Part shown: one piece after another, positions 1,948 to 9,046 of the stretch
How the letters are laid out: each line of letters starts with the position of its first letter
How positions within the stretch are numbered: the first letter of the stretch is position 1
Origin: Nitrospirota bacterium
GTDB lineage: Bacteria > JACPQY01
Length of the DNA: 64,000 nucleotides
NCBI GenBank assembly: GCA_016190245.1
Contig: JACPQY010000080.1
Coordinates: 1 to 64,000, forward strand
Direction of reading: 5' to 3'
Notes under the pieces: model-generated
Told to the model about the DNA's origin: nothing
Seen by the model: the letters and a program-made list of their open reading frames with translations, nothing else
Database searches by the model: none
Made by a program: the position numbers and the translations under genes

Positions 1948-3144
1948 ATGGCCAGGGGATTCGCCGCGGCCGTCCTCGTTGGGGCGCTCGGCCTGGGGGC
2001 GTCCGTCGTCGCCGCCCAAGAGGCCCGTGCCGGAGGGGACGTGGGGCTCATCCTCAGCGCCGAGACCGAGGAGGGCGAAGCGCTGAGAGCCCTGGTGGAG
2101 TCCCACCTGCTGGGCCGATTGACCGCGCTGGATGTGCAGGCGCGTGCCGTGCTCCTTCCGACGGTGCTGCCCCGCAGTGGCGAGCCGTTTCCCGAGGAAT
2201 GGATCGAGAAGGCCTGGCTTGCCTACAAGTACTTCAACTTCGACGAGGCCGAACGGAATCTCCTGCGCGCCGAGGCCGCCGCAGCCCGCTTGGAGAGGCC
2301 CGAGGCCGACCGGCGCGCGCTGTTCGACGTGAAAGTCTTTCAGGGGATGCTGGCGCTTGTGCGGCAGGACCGGGAGCGCGCCGCGCGCCTCATGCTCCGC
2401 GCGGCGGAACTCGGCACCGTTGCGTGGCTCGATCCCCTGCGATTCCCGCCCGGCGTGACTGAACTGTTCAACGTCGCCACCGAGCGGCTCCAGCAGGCCC
2501 CCGTGCGCTCCACGCATGTCCTCACGGAGCCGCCAGGCGCCCAGGTGATCGTGGACGGCCGCACGGCAGGAGCGACCCCCCTGACGCTCCCGCTCTATCT
2601 CCATCACGACTATGCGTTGCGCCTGGAGCGGGAGGACACACGACCCCACGTCCAGGTCCTGAGCGTGCCCTTGCCTGACGACACGCTCAAGGTGTACCTG
2701 GGCCCGCGCACCGCCGAGGAGATCATCTCAGTCGGGCTTGCGAAGTTCTATGCGGAGCCCGCGCTTGGGGCCCAGTGGGTGTCGAGGGTGCGGGAGCAGC
2801 TCGGCGTGAGGCGGCTCTACTTGGGTCGCGTCGCGCGTTCCGGCACCGGCTGGCTGCTGGCGTCCGTCTATTTCAGTGAGGCGGGCGGACTCGTTGTCGG
2901 CCGGGGGATCGCACTTGTCGTGGCGGAGGGAGGGGACGCGTTCGCGGCGGCCAACCCCGGGATCGAGGAGATCGTCCATCGGCTTGCGCAAGCGGACGCC
3001 CGCTTCGGGCCGGGTTTCTGGTCGTTCACGCGGAAGCCCTGGTTCTGGGGGGTGGTGATCGGGGTGGCGGCGGCGGGTGGCGCGGCGCCGTTCGTCGCGG
3101 ACGCCTTGAAGGAGGAGACGGTTACGGTTCGAGTGGTGAAGTAG
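1948..3144 (+). CDS. PEGA-domain secreted or envelope protein
   Basis: A 398-residue protein with a signal peptide (MARGFAAAVLVGALGLGASVVAAQ). After a helical, possibly TPR-like region (residues about 60-170) comes a PEGA domain, recognisable from EPPGAQVIVDGRTAGATPL, and near the C-terminus a hydrophobic segment (WFWGVVIGVAAAGGAAPFV) that may anchor it. PEGA domains are small beta-structures common in surface proteins and kinase ectodomains. The true start is 1948, because the track ORF begins inside the M23 gene. The kinase at 4533-6035 also ends in a PEGA domain, which suggests a related envelope-signalling context. Exact function is unknown. Confidence 0.75.
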   Translation: MARGFAAAVLVGALGLGASVVAAQEARAGGDVGLILSAETEEGEALRALVESHLLGRLTALDVQARAVLLPTVLPRSGEPFPEEWIEKAWLAYKYFNFDEAERNLLRAEAAAARLERPEADRRALFDVKVFQGMLALVRQDRERAARLMLRAAELGTVAWLDPLRFPPGVTELFNVATERLQQAPVRSTHVLTEPPGAQVIVDGRTAGATPLTLPLYLHHDYALRLEREDTRPHVQVLSVPLPDDTLKVYLGPRTAEEIISVGLAKFYAEPALGAQWVSRVREQLGVRRLYLGRVARSGTGWLLASVYFSEAGGLVVGRGIALVVAEGGDAFAAANPGIEEIVHRLAQADARFGPGFWSFTRKPWFWGVVIGVAAAGGAAPFVADALKEETVTVRVVK

Positions 3145-3191
3145 GGACGCACCGCGCCCGGGTTCGGACGGATAGGAATCCGTCCCTACTT
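3139..3191. terminator. Nested hairpin between convergent genes
   Basis: An inner perfect 8-bp stem GGACGGAT-AGGA-ATCCGTCC (3166-3185) sits inside an outer 11-bp pairing AAGTAGGGACG (3139-3149) with CGTCCCTACTT (3181-3191); the two structures compete. It overlaps the last codons of both convergent genes. It is likely a bidirectional terminator, though no long U-tract is present. Confidence 0.55.
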
Positions 3192-4502
3192 GAGTTGCAG
3201 CTTCTTCACCATCCGCTCGAGGTACTTGCGATCGATCCCGGCCGTGCGGGCGGATTCCGAGATGTTGTAGCCCTTCGCGGACAGGAGCTGAGAGAGATAC
3301 TGGCGCTCGAAGTCCGTCAGAAGCCGCCGCTTGGCATCCTTGAAGGGGACGCTGATGTCCACCCCCGCTGACCGGCGTTCCGTTTCCTTGGGAAAGAAGT
3401 CGCGATGGTCGGGAAGGACGAGCAGCTTTTGCAGACTGTTGCGCAACTCGCGCACGTTCCCCGGCCAAGAGTAGGACTGGAAGAGGGGAATCGTCTCTGC
3501 CGGGAGACGTGACTTCTCGGAAGGGCCCAGATCCTTGAGGATTTTCTCGATGAGGAGAGGCAGGTCCTCGCGTCGCTCGCGAAGCGGCGGCATGTGGACG
3601 CGGATCGTGTTCAGCCGGTAGAACAGGTCGTTTCGGAAGCGCCCCGTGCGGACCTCTTCCTCCAGGTTCCTGTTCGTGGCCGCGAGGAACCGAACATCCA
3701 CCTTGATGGTGGAGGTGCCGCCGATCCGCCGGATCTCCCGTTGCTCCAGCGCCCTCAGGAGCTTGGGCTGGAGTTCCGGGTCCAGCTCTCCGATCTCGTC
3801 GAGAAAGAGCGTGCCGCGGTGCGCCAACTCGAGGGCGCCCATCTTGTCGCCCTGGGCTCCCGTGAACGATCCGCGCATGTGGCCGAAGAGTTCGCTCTCG
3901 GCCAGCGTTTTCGGCACCGATCCGGAATCGAACACCACGAACGGCCCGTCCTTGCGCGGACTGTGCTGGTGCAGCGCCCGCGCCACCAGCTCCTTGCCCG
4001 TGCCGGTCTCACCCTCGATCAACACCGTTATGTCCGTGGGGGCGACGCGCTCGAGGAGTGCAAACACCCGGCGCATGGCCACGCTCGTGCCCGCGAGGTC
4101 TCCGAATGAGGTCCGCTCGCTGAGCGCCACTTCCACTTGATCCTTGAGGGGCTCGAACGTGATCTGAGTCGCCCCCAGCGCGATCGTCGAGTACGGCGGC
4201 ACGTAGGCCTCCCGCACGAGGAACCCTCCCACGCTCGTGCCGTTCGTGCTGCCGAGGTCGAGTAGGAGGTAGCCCCTTGGCGTGAGCCGGATCTCCGCAT
4301 GATGGCGGGAGATCGTCTCGTCCGTCAGGACGACGTTGTTGTCGGAGGCGGTCCCGAGACGGACCACGTCCTTGTCCACCACCACTTTGCGGCCCTTCTC
4401 CGGCCCCCTGAGGAGCCTGAAGAGCAACTTGCGGAAGACGAGCTTCGTGGGCCGCTCGTCCGCGGAGACGAGCTTGGTGACCTCGGGGGCAATCTCGGTC
4501 AT
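3186..4502 (-). CDS. FHA-domain sigma54-dependent transcriptional activator
   Basis: Domain order is an N-terminal FHA domain (residues about 25-120; RLGTASDNNVVL, SRHHAEI, GSTNGT), a sigma54-interaction AAA+ domain and a C-terminal Fis-type helix-turn-helix (SESARTAGIDRKYLERMVKK). Walker A is GETGTGKE and the sigma54-contact loop reads GSFTGA instead of the usual GAFTGA. FHA domains bind phosphothreonine, so input is probably from a Ser/Thr kinase rather than a histidine kinase. The neighbouring upstream gene on the same strand is exactly such a kinase, 30 bases away. Target promoters (-24/-12 type) were not identified. Confidence 0.93.
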   Translation of the reverse strand: MTEIAPEVTKLVSADERPTKLVFRKLLFRLLRGPEKGRKVVVDKDVVRLGTASDNNVVLTDETISRHHAEIRLTPRGYLLLDLGSTNGTSVGGFLVREAYVPPYSTIALGATQITFEPLKDQVEVALSERTSFGDLAGTSVAMRRVFALLERVAPTDITVLIEGETGTGKELVARALHQHSPRKDGPFVVFDSGSVPKTLAESELFGHMRGSFTGAQGDKMGALELAHRGTLFLDEIGELDPELQPKLLRALEQREIRRIGGTSTIKVDVRFLAATNRNLEEEVRTGRFRNDLFYRLNTIRVHMPPLRERREDLPLLIEKILKDLGPSEKSRLPAETIPLFQSYSWPGNVRELRNSLQKLLVLPDHRDFFPKETERRSAGVDISVPFKDAKRRLLTDFERQYLSQLLSAKGYNISESARTAGIDRKYLERMVKKLQLK

Positions 4503-4532
4503 GGATTCGTGGCGGTCACGAGGTGGACCATC

Positions 4533-6035
4533 TCAAGGTTCCTCGGACAGGTCAATGACCAGATTGTGGGTCTGGCCGGGACGGACATCGAGCTCGATCT
4601 TTCTCTTCCGCGTCATATAGGGGTTGGTGAGCTCTACGACGTGATGTCCGGCGCTCAGTTTCAGTTTCATGAGCGGAGTGGTGCCGTCGAGCGGCCGGCC
4701 ATCCACGATCACGTGCGCCCAGGGTGTGCTGTTCAGGTTGAGGTAGCCGAAAGCGTCCGGGGTGGGACGGGGCGCAGGCGCCGGCGGGGGTTCGGCGGGC
4801 TGAGGCGTCTCAGTCACCGCGTTCGGGGGCCCGGCTGCGGCGGTCGGAGGAGCGGGCGCGGGCATCTCGTCGGCGGGCGCGGACGCGGCGGCTTCGGGAG
4901 GGTGATGGACGGGAGCGACCGGCTCGGGCCGGCCGGACCGTGTGAGCGCCACCACGGCCGTAGCAATCAGGCCGGCGCCGACGGCGCCTGCGGCCCAAAC
5001 CCAACGCCGGCCCTTTGAGGCGGTCGGCCCGCCCTGGGGCATGACCTTCGTGGGCCGACGCTCCGAATCCGCAGTGGTTCGCGGCGCAACCGTGCGGGTC
5101 TCCGGCGGAAAGAGTCCTTTGAGGAAACGGCCCAGCTTCCGCTCCCATCGCTGGGAGCCGTGCTCGAACAGAAGGCGCTGCAATTGTTCCCCGATCTCGC
5201 CCGCGGTTTGAAACCTCTCGGCGGGCAAGGGCTTAAGGAGGCGACGAAGTGTCTCCGCCAGCGCCGGCGCCATCTTCGGTGACGCCTCAAGGGGGTCGGG
5301 GATGGCCGCGTTCTTCGCCCGCTCCAGAACCAGGAAATCGTTCTCGTCCGCCAGCGGGTTCAGGCCTGTCAACATCTCGTAGAGTGTCAGGCCCAGCGCG
5401 TAGAGATCCGCCCGTGCATCGATCGTTTCGCCCCGCGCCTGCTCAGGCGACATGTAGCTCCACTTGCCCTTGAGAGCAGGCACGGAGGTCTGCGGATGGA
5501 TCGCCACCTTGGCGATGCCGAAGTCGCCCAGCTTCACCTCGCCTTCGTAACTCAGGTAGATATTGGAAGGGCTCACGTCGCGGTGCACGATGTTGAGCAG
5601 GTGCCCCTCCGCATCGCGCTTCTCGTGGGCGTACTCGAGCGCGGCCAGCACCTCGTGAGCCACATAGACGCACAGGGATTCCGGCAGGCGCTCGCCGCGT
5701 CGGGCGAGGGCGCGCAGGACCTGGCCGAGGTCCTGGCCCTCCACGTAGTCCATCACGAGGTAGTACGAGCCGTCCCACTCCCCGTGATCGAACACGGAGA
5801 CGATGTTGCGGTGCGACAGCGCGAAGGCGAGCTTGACCTCCTGCAGGAACATGGCCCTCAGTTGGGGGTCCTCGGCCCACTGCGGGAGAATCTTTTTCAG
5901 GGCGACCGTTTTTTCCGCGCCGTCGCTGGTGACGAGGCGCGCCTTGTACACCTCGGCCATTCCGCCCAGTCCGATCCGTTCGAGGACCTCGTATCGGCCG
6001 ATCTGGTGCGGCGCGTCCGAGGGCAGGGCGCTCAT
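4533..6035 (-). CDS. Ser/Thr protein kinase with C-terminal PEGA domain
   Basis: The N-terminal kinase domain (about 14-275) has the glycine loop IGLGGMAEVYK, the catalytic loop HRDVSPSNIYL, the DFG motif and the activation segment ending MSPEQARG. A proline/alanine-rich linker follows, with one transmembrane helix (WVWAAGAVGAGLIATAVVAL, about 330-350). The C-terminal PEGA domain (STPWAHVIVDGRPLDGTTPL) would then face the periplasm. The kinase should phosphorylate Ser/Thr on cytoplasmic partners; the FHA-sigma54 activator immediately downstream is the obvious candidate. The two genes look like one operon. Confidence 0.93.
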   Translation of the reverse strand: MSALPSDAPHQIGRYEVLERIGLGGMAEVYKARLVTSDGAEKTVALKKILPQWAEDPQLRAMFLQEVKLAFALSHRNIVSVFDHGEWDGSYYLVMDYVEGQDLGQVLRALARRGERLPESLCVYVAHEVLAALEYAHEKRDAEGHLLNIVHRDVSPSNIYLSYEGEVKLGDFGIAKVAIHPQTSVPALKGKWSYMSPEQARGETIDARADLYALGLTLYEMLTGLNPLADENDFLVLERAKNAAIPDPLEASPKMAPALAETLRRLLKPLPAERFQTAGEIGEQLQRLLFEHGSQRWERKLGRFLKGLFPPETRTVAPRTTADSERRPTKVMPQGGPTASKGRRWVWAAGAVGAGLIATAVVALTRSGRPEPVAPVHHPPEAAASAPADEMPAPAPPTAAAGPPNAVTETPQPAEPPPAPAPRPTPDAFGYLNLNSTPWAHVIVDGRPLDGTTPLMKLKLSAGHHVVELTNPYMTRKRKIELDVRPGQTHNLVIDLSEEP

Positions 6036-6135: not shown

Positions 6136-6498
6136 ATGAATGTCTTGGACCATCCGATCACCGTCGTGCGCAGCGGCCTCCGCTGGAGGCTTGTCGGCGC
6201 GGTCTCGCGCGCCTTCGTGCCCGGCCGGGTGGCCGTGACCATCGCCCGTCGGGTGTATGCCTACAGGTGGCCGTTGCCGCCGGGGGTGATGGAGCACGAA
6301 TGTGTCCACGTCCGCCAGTTCGAACGTGAACGCTACCTGATGTGGATCCGGTACGTTCGCTCGTTCCTTGCCGGTTGGATCCGGACGCGAAGCCGTCAGC
6401 GCGCGTATGCGGAAAACCCTTATGAAGTGGAAGCGTGCGAACGCGCCGACCAGATCGCCGCGGCGAGTCGTGTGGTCGAAGTCGATGATCGATCCTGA
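6136..6498 (+). CDS. Small conserved protein with HExxH motif (zincin-like)
   Basis: A 120-residue protein divergent from the kinase gene. It contains HECVHVRQFER (an HExxH zinc-protease-type motif, about residues 54-58) and, about 40 residues later, NPYEVEACERAD, where a glutamate could be the third zinc ligand. No signal peptide is obvious. The arrangement resembles short uncharacterised zincin-like proteins. Peptidase activity is inferred from the motif alone. Confidence 0.6.
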   Translation: MNVLDHPITVVRSGLRWRLVGAVSRAFVPGRVAVTIARRVYAYRWPLPPGVMEHECVHVRQFERERYLMWIRYVRSFLAGWIRTRSRQRAYAENPYEVEACERADQIAAASRVVEVDDRS

Positions 6499-6539: not shown

Positions 6540-7721
6540 CTATCGGCCGCGCAGGGCGGGGCGCGGCCCCGAGCGCAGTTCCGATTCGGATTCGGAAGAG
6601 TGCATGGGACGCGGGCGGGTGCCGAGCGTGCGAAGGAATGCCACGAGATCCCAGCGGTCCCGGTCGCTCAGGTGGTCCTTCCAGGGCGGCATGACGGGAC
6701 GGCGACCGTAGGTGATGACGTCGTACCAGTCCTGATCGGTCTCCATGACGATCCACATGGGGTCCGTCAGGTCGGCGGGCCGGCGCGGAAGGTCCGCCGC
6801 CGCGGGCCCTTGTCCGTTGCCCTCGGGACCATGGCAGGTGACACACAGCTCGGCGAACAGCTCCGCCCCGTGCTCCGGTGAGGGGCGTTCCGTGGGGTAG
6901 GTGATGAAAAGCGACTGCTCGTCGTCGTCGGGAGCCGCCGCGGCGAGGACGAGTTCGGTCCCGTACGCGGTGAAAAACCCGAGCAGCAGACCGCCCATGA
7001 CCCATTCGTGCGCCCCGCGGTGGCGACCGAGGTGGAGAAGCTCGCCCACGACGTACAGGATCGAACCGCTCGCCATGGCCAGAAAGACGAGTTGGGCGAG
7101 CGGGCTGGAGACGCGCAGTCCCAGGAGCGTGCCGAACATCGTGGGGAGGCCGCCGATGCAGCCGAGGAGCGCCACGTAGCGGATGGAGGGCTTTGTCCCG
7201 CCCAGCGGGCCGGCGATTCCGAAACCCTCCGTCGCGTTGTGCAAGGCGAAGCCGACGATGAGGAGTTGCGCGAGCGCCATCGCTCCCGAGGCGTAGGCCG
7301 CGCCGATGGCGAGACCCTCGCTGAGGTTGTGCAGCCCTATGCCCGTGGCGACCATGAGGGCGAGGTGTTGCGCCCGGCGATCCGCGGGGACCTCCTCGTC
7401 CTTGGCGTTCTTGATGAAGCGCCGGTCGAACCACACCAGTGCCCAGAATCCACCTGCGATGCCGACGACGAGTGGGACGAACAGCTCCAAGGCGAGGGGG
7501 AGCGAGATCTTTCCGAGGCGCGCCGCCCCGACGATCACTTCGCCCTGCTCCAGCACTTGCGCGCCGATCTCGATGAGAAGGTACACAAGGACGCCAACCG
7601 AGAAGGCCGTGAGCAAGCTGCGCAGGCGCGCGTGGGCACCGCCCAGGAAGGCCACGGGAAGGCCGAGAAAAATCGTCCCGCCGGCTACGAGGGCGAGGAG
7701 AAGGGCGTTCAGGTCGTTCAT
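6540..7721 (-). CDS. ZIP-family metal transporter fused to a cytochrome c domain
   Basis: A 393-residue fusion. Residues about 1-270 are a ZIP permease with eight or so hydrophobic segments and the paired metal-site helices GLHNLSEGLAIG and ALHNATEGFGI. Residues about 285-370 form a mono-haem cytochrome c with CVTCHGPEGNGQGP (CxxCH) and a likely axial Met in VMPPWKDHLS. ZIP proteins move Zn2+, Fe2+ or Mn2+ into the cytoplasm. The haem domain would sit on the periplasmic side, suggesting redox-coupled metal uptake, perhaps ferric/ferrous iron. No frameshift or stop interrupts the junction. The gene is divergent from the acyl-CoA dehydrogenase gene. Confidence 0.85.
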   Translation of the reverse strand: MNDLNALLLALVAGGTIFLGLPVAFLGGAHARLRSLLTAFSVGVLVYLLIEIGAQVLEQGEVIVGAARLGKISLPLALELFVPLVVGIAGGFWALVWFDRRFIKNAKDEEVPADRRAQHLALMVATGIGLHNLSEGLAIGAAYASGAMALAQLLIVGFALHNATEGFGIAGPLGGTKPSIRYVALLGCIGGLPTMFGTLLGLRVSSPLAQLVFLAMASGSILYVVGELLHLGRHRGAHEWVMGGLLLGFFTAYGTELVLAAAAPDDDEQSLFITYPTERPSPEHGAELFAELCVTCHGPEGNGQGPAAADLPRRPADLTDPMWIVMETDQDWYDVITYGRRPVMPPWKDHLSDRDRWDLVAFLRTLGTRPRPMHSSESESELRSGPRPALRGR

Positions 7722-7823
7722 CGGGGGTTCCCAGAAGTGAGAATGAAAATCATCATCGTAGCTCGGCCATCCATGGCGTGCCGAGCGTACGGGCGCGGGC
7801 CGGCGATGTCAAGCGAGGATGTG

Positions 7824-7851
7824 TTGACAGACCGCCTCGCGTTGCTACGAT
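7824..7851 (+). promoter_or_regulatory. Sigma70-type promoter for the acyl-CoA dehydrogenase gene
   Basis: TTGACA (7824-7829), a 16-base spacer and TACGAT (7846-7851), about 50 bases before the start codon in the divergent intergenic region. Match to consensus is good for the -35 and moderate for the -10. Confidence 0.55.

Positions 7852-7900: not shown

Positions 7901-9046
<1,146 letters not shown>

What the first reader, a model, noticed from the sequence alone, without database searches (positions are those of the whole stretch)
6540..7721. ZIP metal permease fused to a periplasmic-type cytochrome c
Residues 1-270 are a ZIP transporter with both HN..EG metal motifs. Residues 285-370 are a cytochrome c with CVTCH and a probable Met axial ligand. 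A haem domain tethered to a metal importer suggests reduction (for example Fe3+ to Fe2+) at the pore mouth, or redox gating. I know of no characterised system of this design.
Basis: partly seen in the sequence, partly recalled or inferred. Interest (0 to 1): 0.62.

Follow-up and report, generated by a model that had tools for sequence, protein, structure and literature searches.

The report
Fur-controlled ZIP permease–cytochrome c fusion
A bacterium from a barely sampled phylum makes a metal-import pore joined to a haem protein on the outer face of the membrane, and its gene carries the iron-starvation control box also found at the cell's FTR1 iron permease, so it is probably an iron importer with its own redox partner.

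Summary
ORF 6540-7721 (-) is one 393-aa protein: an 8-helix ZIP permease (residues 1-262, both HNxxEG motifs) followed by a class I cytochrome c (about 282-366; CVTCH 293-297, candidate Met344). Topology puts the haem outside the cytoplasm.

New here: a near-perfect Fur (iron) box lies 17 nt upstream of the start codon. Only three such sites exist in the 3.29-Mb genome (0.02 expected). The other two precede an FTR1 iron permease and the porin-like gene next to it. The genome has two Fur-family proteins and cytochrome c assembly proteins. Iron is therefore the best-supported substrate.

The ZIP part belongs to a broad clade whose members carry other extracytoplasmic domains: multicopper oxidase, cupredoxin, or an unnamed HGG domain. 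None of the 80 best GTDB relatives, nor about 390 sampled genomes, has a second ZIP-cytochrome c fusion. Known neighbours are ZIP next to multicopper oxidase in ammonia-oxidising archaea and cytochrome c/FTR1 permeases, so this is a new variant of a known kind.

Best mechanism: ferrous iron import, with the tethered haem exchanging electrons with iron at the periplasmic mouth. Reduction of Fe(III) is favoured but unproven; electron direction is the main open point.

The parts
6540..7721 (-). ZIP-cytochrome c fusion gene, 393 aa, single ORF
6936..7721 (-). ZIP permease domain, residues 1-262, eight TM helices
   Evidence: Pfam Zip above cut-off; AF2 pLDDT mostly >90; Foldseek BbZIP
7314..7331 (-). 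TM4 metal motif HNLSEG (residues 131-136)
   Evidence: H131, N132, E135 invariant in 80 aligned sequences
7224..7241 (-). TM5 metal motif HNATEG (residues 161-166)
   Evidence: H161, N162, E165 invariant in 80 aligned sequences
6879..6935 (-). acidic extracytoplasmic linker, residues 263-281
   Evidence: low AF2 confidence, acidic; relatives carry their extra C-terminal domains at the same point
6624..6878 (-). class I mono-haem cytochrome c domain, residues 282-366
   Evidence: Pfam Cytochrome_CBB3 2.6e-14 and Cytochrom_C 7.8e-12; PDB relatives: ACIII cytochrome subunit, CcoP
6831..6845 (-). haem attachment motif CVTCH (residues 293-297)
   Evidence: sequence
6690..6692 (-). candidate distal Met ligand M344 (MPPW)
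   Evidence: sequence only
7739..7757 (.). Fur box GAGAATGAAAATCATCATC, 16/19 to GATAATGATAATCATTATC, 17 nt upstream of the start codon
   Evidence: only site with <=3 mismatches in window, 0 in 100 shuffles; 3 sites genome-wide

Best explanation
This is a Fur-controlled, inner-membrane iron importer of the ZIP family with a haem domain tethered to its extracytoplasmic C-terminus. Shown by sequence: one ORF, an 8-helix ZIP fold with intact metal motifs, a CXXCH cytochrome c domain above Pfam cut-offs, and a Fur-type operator directly upstream that is shared only with an FTR1 iron permease and its neighbouring porin-like gene. Inferred from topology: the haem lies in the periplasm at the pore entrance. 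Inferred from regulation and family: the substrate is Fe2+ taken up under iron starvation. Inferred with less certainty: the haem exchanges electrons with iron at the mouth, most likely reducing Fe(III) to the Fe(II) that ZIP pores carry, using electrons from the respiratory chain. It would then act as a one-protein counterpart of a ferric reductase plus ZIP importer such as FRO2 and IRT1. I put iron import with a periplasmic haem domain at about 0.7 and the reductive direction at about 0.4. The confidence below is for the whole statement.
For: Pfam domains above cut-off. ZIP fold with only BbZIP as significant PDB match. Metal-site residues H131, N132, E135, H161, N162 and E165 invariant in 80 sequences. 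Cytoplasmic loops carry more K/R than periplasmic loops (12 against 4 including the linker), giving N-out and C-out. Fur box: 3 mismatches, none in 100 shuffles, 0 of 5000 first-order simulations of the 210-nt upstream region; next best in the window has 6 mismatches. Three sites in the genome, 0 for the reversed control, 0.018 expected; a consensus of the three finds the same three only. The other two precede FTR1 (PF03239, 1e-29) and the following porin-like gene. Two Fur-family proteins are encoded, scoring best to Fur models. Cytochrome c assembly proteins are present. A near relative, L007, has a 4-mismatch Fur box 52 nt upstream (0 of 500 simulations). E. coli ZupT, also a ZIP, carries iron (PMC3852070).
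Against: No transport or redox data exist for this protein. Class I cytochromes c usually have rather high potentials, which suits taking electrons from Fe2+ or Cu+ better than reducing chelated Fe(III) (general knowledge). Partner domains in relatives are mostly oxidases or high-potential carriers. Only one of 80 relatives besides this gene has a clear Fur box, so iron may not be the substrate of the whole clade; an ArsR-type gene lies directly upstream of the L007 ZIP. The cytochrome domain could not be modelled with confidence, so haem-to-pore distance is unknown.
Confidence: 0.5

Rival explanations
1. The haem works in the oxidative direction. Like the multicopper oxidase and cupredoxin domains of its relatives, it accepts an electron from a reduced metal (Fe2+, or Cu+ to Cu2+) before or during uptake, as proposed for archaeal MCO-ZIP pairs and as in Fet3-Ftr1.
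For: The same ZIP clade carries fused MCO (L033, L034, L039, L046) and cupredoxin (L010, L015, L018, L021-L023) domains. A sister clade has an MCO gene directly upstream. Copper oxidation then ZIP uptake is proposed in PMC7785015.
Against: Oxidised iron (Fe3+) is not the form ZIP pores are known to carry. The Fur box points to iron, not copper. No copper genes adjoin the gene in the window.
Confidence: 0.22
2. The haem domain does not act on the metal. It is a redox sensor or gate for the pore, or a tethered electron carrier for another periplasmic partner.
For: The linker is about 19 residues and acidic, with low AF2 confidence, so the domain may be mobile. Its closest solved sequences include respiratory-chain cytochromes.
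Against: Redox or metal-binding domains are joined to this ZIP clade in several separate lineages, which suggests a role linked to the metal.
Confidence: 0.13
3. The pore mainly carries another divalent metal (Zn, Mn or Co) and the Fur control reflects cross-talk in metal homeostasis.
For: ZIP proteins are often broad (ZupT: Zn, Fe, Co, possibly Mn; PMC3852070). The M2-site Glu of BbZIP aligns by eye with Thr194 here, so selectivity may differ.
Against: The only other Fur-type sites in the genome are at FTR1 and its neighbour. A second, ordinary ZIP without such a site exists on contig C63.
Confidence: 0.1
4. The fusion is an assembly or frameshift error joining two genes, or a non-functional join.
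For: The genome is a fragmented assembly (86 contigs) and no second ZIP-cytochrome c fusion was found.
Against: Uniform codon use and GC across the junction, an open frame with no stops, a fusion point that matches other C-terminal fusions in the clade, and an operator at the expected place.
Confidence: 0.04

Closest known systems
ZIP permease next to two-domain multicopper oxidase MCO1 in ammonia-oxidising archaea (NVIE_000590/NVIE_000600; PMC7785015, PMC7819960)
   Same: A ZIP permease paired with an extracytoplasmic redox protein; a metal-redox-then-uptake model has been proposed.
   Different: Separate genes, copper oxidase rather than haem, proposed substrate copper; the pair was induced by copper limitation rather than tied to a Fur box.
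ZIP-MCO and ZIP-cupredoxin fusions found here (L033, L034, L039, L046, plasmid L100; L010, L015, L018, L021-L023)
   Same: Same ZIP clade, one polypeptide, partner domain on the extracytoplasmic side.
   Different: Copper-based partner domain; none of those tested shows a clear Fur box.
Cytochrome c/FTR1 family iron permease (annotated e.g. in Idiomarina, PMC9230427)
   Same: A cytochrome c joined to an iron permease.
   Different: The permease is FTR1, not ZIP. Named from published annotation only; not examined here.
FRO2 reductase with IRT1 ZIP importer in plants (PMC3968747)
   Same: Functional analogy: reduce Fe(III), then import Fe(II) through a ZIP pore, induced by iron starvation.
   Different: Two proteins; FRO2 is a membrane flavocytochrome b (general knowledge), not a cytochrome c.
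VciB and other PepSY-type or flavinylated assimilatory iron reductases (PMC8238504)
   Same: Extracytoplasmic iron reduction proposed to serve Fe(II) import, some gene clusters Fur-controlled.
   Different: Unrelated proteins; not fused to a ZIP.

Membership tests
ZIP (ZRT/IRT-like) permeases, Pfam PF02535 | Profile match above gathering score | tested here: met
   46.5 bits, cut-off 35.1
ZIP (ZRT/IRT-like) permeases, Pfam PF02535 | Eight-TM ZIP fold | tested here: met
   8 helices, pLDDT mostly >90; BbZIP structures are the only significant PDB matches
ZIP (ZRT/IRT-like) permeases, Pfam PF02535 | TM4 and TM5 metal ligands (H, N, E on each helix) | tested here: met
   H131, N132, E135, H161, N162, E165, invariant in 80 sequences
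ZupT equivalog (NCBIfam NF003243) | Score above curated cut-off | tested here: not met
   52.9 bits against 252
Class I cytochrome c | CXXCH and profile match above cut-off | tested here: met
   CVTCH 293-297; PF13442 53.7 bits (27), PF00034 46.8 bits (21.3)
Class I cytochrome c | Distal axial Met ligand | tested here: inconclusive
   M344 in MPPW at the expected place by sequence; the fold could not be modelled
Class I cytochrome c | Covalent haem, extracytoplasmic | not testable with these tools
   Topology and cytochrome c assembly proteins are consistent with it
Cytochrome c/FTR1 permease | FTR1 permease domain | tested here: not met
   Permease is Zip; no FTR1 match
ZIP-multicopper oxidase fusion or pair | MCO domain fused or adjacent | tested here: not met
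   None in the protein; neighbours are an acyl-CoA dehydrogenase and an unknown 120-aa ORF
Fur regulon | Fur box at the promoter or leader and a Fur protein in the genome | tested here: met
   binding itself not tested

The most novel reading that the evidence does not exclude
A single polypeptide acts as ferric reductase and ferrous permease: the tethered cytochrome c feeds respiratory electrons to Fe(III) at the ZIP pore mouth. It would be one of a series of 'redox-headed' ZIP importers in which haem, cupredoxin or multicopper oxidase heads were gained separately.
Probability: 0.35. Interest if true: 0.75.

Novelty: new variant of a known kind. Interest (0 to 1): 0.57.

Why it matters
How bacteria couple metal redox state to uptake across the inner membrane is poorly understood. 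Here the redox centre and the pore are one molecule, the gene carries an iron-regulator site, and the same ZIP clade carries other extracytoplasmic domains (multicopper oxidase, cupredoxin, HGG) in other lineages. That gives a natural comparative set for asking which way the electrons go and whether the partner domain sets metal choice. It also gives a substrate hint (iron) for a large ZIP clade that databases label only as 'metal transporter' or zinc permease.

Tried and rejected
Viral contigs were scanned with the cytochrome part: no relative. AlphaFold2 of the whole protein left the cytochrome unmodelled because no alignment rows cover it, and the cytochrome alone folded poorly (mean pLDDT 45), so no haem-to-pore distance is claimed. 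A phylum search around G058 returned one genome, because its phylum has one held genome. The window's own phylum has two held genomes; the sister G001 lacks this ZIP. Placement in the tree is unsure: the window sequence is a long branch (1.06) with no starred set around it, so no claim is made about its nearest fused relative. I considered that the archaeal MCO-ZIP pair is the same clade; the MCO-adjacent loci seen here (L103, L110, L111, L113) fall in a separate sister clade and the Rhodococcus operon (L101) was not placed in the tree, so the link is by kind, not shown by descent. The assembly-error idea was tested by codon use and rejected. A plasmid search with the genome's FTR1 did not retrieve a cytochrome c/FTR1 example, so that precedent rests on published annotation only.

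Full report
OBSERVATION. ORF 6540-7721 on the minus strand encodes 393 aa without interruption. Pfam places Zip at 108-224 and Cytochrome_CBB3 at 282-363, both above curated cut-offs. The gene stands alone: the upstream neighbour is a divergent acyl-CoA dehydrogenase starting at 7901, and the downstream neighbour is a convergent 120-aa ORF of unknown family ending at 6498.

ZIP PART. With 79 relatives aligned, H131, N132, E135, H161, N162 and E165 are invariant, and G191, P193 and T194 in TM6 are invariant or nearly so. AlphaFold2 gives eight helices with pLDDT mostly above 90, and the only significant PDB matches are eight BbZIP structures. In the profile alignment to BbZIP, read by eye, the Glu of TM6 that forms part of the second metal site falls opposite Thr194 (role of that Glu from general knowledge), so the second site probably differs. 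K and R are richer in the loops that should face the cytoplasm (12 against 4, linker counted outside). N- and C-termini therefore face outward, and the haem domain is extracytoplasmic.

CYTOCHROME PART. The nearest solved sequences are a hypothetical cytochrome, an Alternative Complex III cytochrome subunit and CcoP proteins. The genome carries 14 Cytochrome_CBB3 matches and three proteins with a cytochrome c assembly domain, so haem attachment is plausible. No confident model of the domain was obtained.

IRON CONTROL. At 7739-7757, 17 nt upstream of the ATG, lies GAGAATGAAAATCATCATC, 16 of 19 to the Fur box. It is the only site in the window with three or fewer mismatches, none appeared in 100 shuffles, and the next best site has six. 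First-order simulations of the upstream stretch never reached it (0 of 5000). In the whole 3.29-Mb assembly there are three such sites and none for the reversed control; base composition alone predicts 0.018. Searching with the consensus of these three sites returns only the same three. The second site is directly upstream of an FTR1 iron permease (PF03239, 1e-29) and the third is upstream of the next gene, a porin-like protein ('porin-like' is my reading of the sequence, no Pfam match). The genome encodes two Fur-family proteins that score best against Fur models, although below the curated equivalog cut-offs. The sigma-70-like site for the acyl-CoA dehydrogenase is at 7824-7851, 66 nt away from the box, so the box more likely serves the fusion gene. 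Among 80 relatives only L007 has a clear Fur box (4 mismatches, 52 nt upstream, 0 of 500 simulations). Its ZIP gene breaks at a contig end, and a fragment elsewhere in the same assembly continues the identical ZIP sequence into a cupredoxin.

RELATIVES. A scan of GTDB genomes gave 482 confirmed relatives, of which the best 80 were kept. None of these 80 is a ZIP-cytochrome c fusion and none has a cytochrome c gene next to the ZIP. Two sampled searches of 98 and 386 genomes (overlapping sets) found no second case. The same ZIP clade does carry other extracytoplasmic domains: two-domain multicopper oxidase at the N-terminus (L033, L034) or C-terminus (L039, L046, and plasmid protein L100), cupredoxin at the C-terminus (L010, L015, L018, L021-L023), and an unnamed HGG-containing domain with no Pfam match (L003, L004, L006, L009, L011, L070). 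That is 16 of 80. These sit in separate parts of the tree, which suggests repeated gain, though no formal test of the number of gains was run. A sister clade of four (L103, L110, L111, L113) has a two-domain MCO-like gene directly upstream, and Rhodococcus plasmids have an MCO-domain protein, a ZIP-type 'metal transporter' and a Rieske protein in a row.

MECHANISM. ZIP pores carry divalent metals; E. coli ZupT carries iron as well as zinc (PMC3852070). Fur control, shared with FTR1, makes iron the best-supported substrate. A haem at the entrance could reduce Fe(III) to the Fe(II) that the pore carries, in the way FRO2 feeds IRT1 in plants (PMC3968747) and as proposed for VciB-type and flavinylated reductases (PMC8238504). 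Against this, class I cytochromes and the copper domains of relatives are usually high-potential (general knowledge), and an oxidative model (Cu+ to Cu2+, then ZIP) has been proposed for the archaeal pairs (PMC7785015). Sequence alone cannot settle the direction. Shown: fusion, fold of the ZIP part, motifs, Fur-type site. Inferred: haem attachment, topology, iron transport, electron transfer.

NOVELTY. ZIP beside MCO is published, and a cytochrome c/FTR1 permease is an annotated protein name (PMC9230427, table entry). A ZIP joined to a cytochrome c was not found in the literature searched nor in the collections searched. It is a new variant of a known kind.

Noticed in passing
G000 contig C52:12546-17498 (locus L142): Fur-box cluster: FTR1 permease, porin-like protein, a 490-aa ORF with one CSSCH followed by a barrel-like sequence (possible haem-bearing porin), then an FMN_bind/ApbE-like protein. 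Looks like an extracytoplasmic iron-redox uptake locus.
   Followed up: partly
G000 contig C25:44232-45746 (locus L136): A 505-aa protein with a Cu-oxidase_3 domain and a C-terminal cytochrome c, similar in layout to NirK-cytochrome c nitrite reductases.
   Followed up: partly
L003, L004, L006, L009, L011, L070 (C-terminal ~110 aa): Unnamed domain with an H-x-PRHGG-like motif fused to the ZIP C-terminus in Omnitrophota; no Pfam match. Possibly metal-binding.
   Followed up: partly
L033, L034, L039, L046, L100: ZIP permeases fused to two-domain multicopper oxidases, at either terminus, in Eremiobacterota, Deinococcales/Deinococcus and Alicyclobacillus.
   Followed up: partly
L101 (Rhodococcus plasmid) 2370-5106: Gene row multicopper oxidase-domain protein, ZIP-type metal transporter, Rieske protein; the transporter-Rieske pair recurs on several Rhodococcus plasmids.
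   Followed up: no
L007 5470-6750: ArsR-type regulator gene (ELCVCD motif) directly upstream of the ZIP-cupredoxin gene, in addition to a Fur-like box.
   Followed up: no
window 6136-6498 (+): 120-aa ORF with a HECVHVRQ stretch and no Pfam match; convergent with the fusion gene.
   Followed up: no
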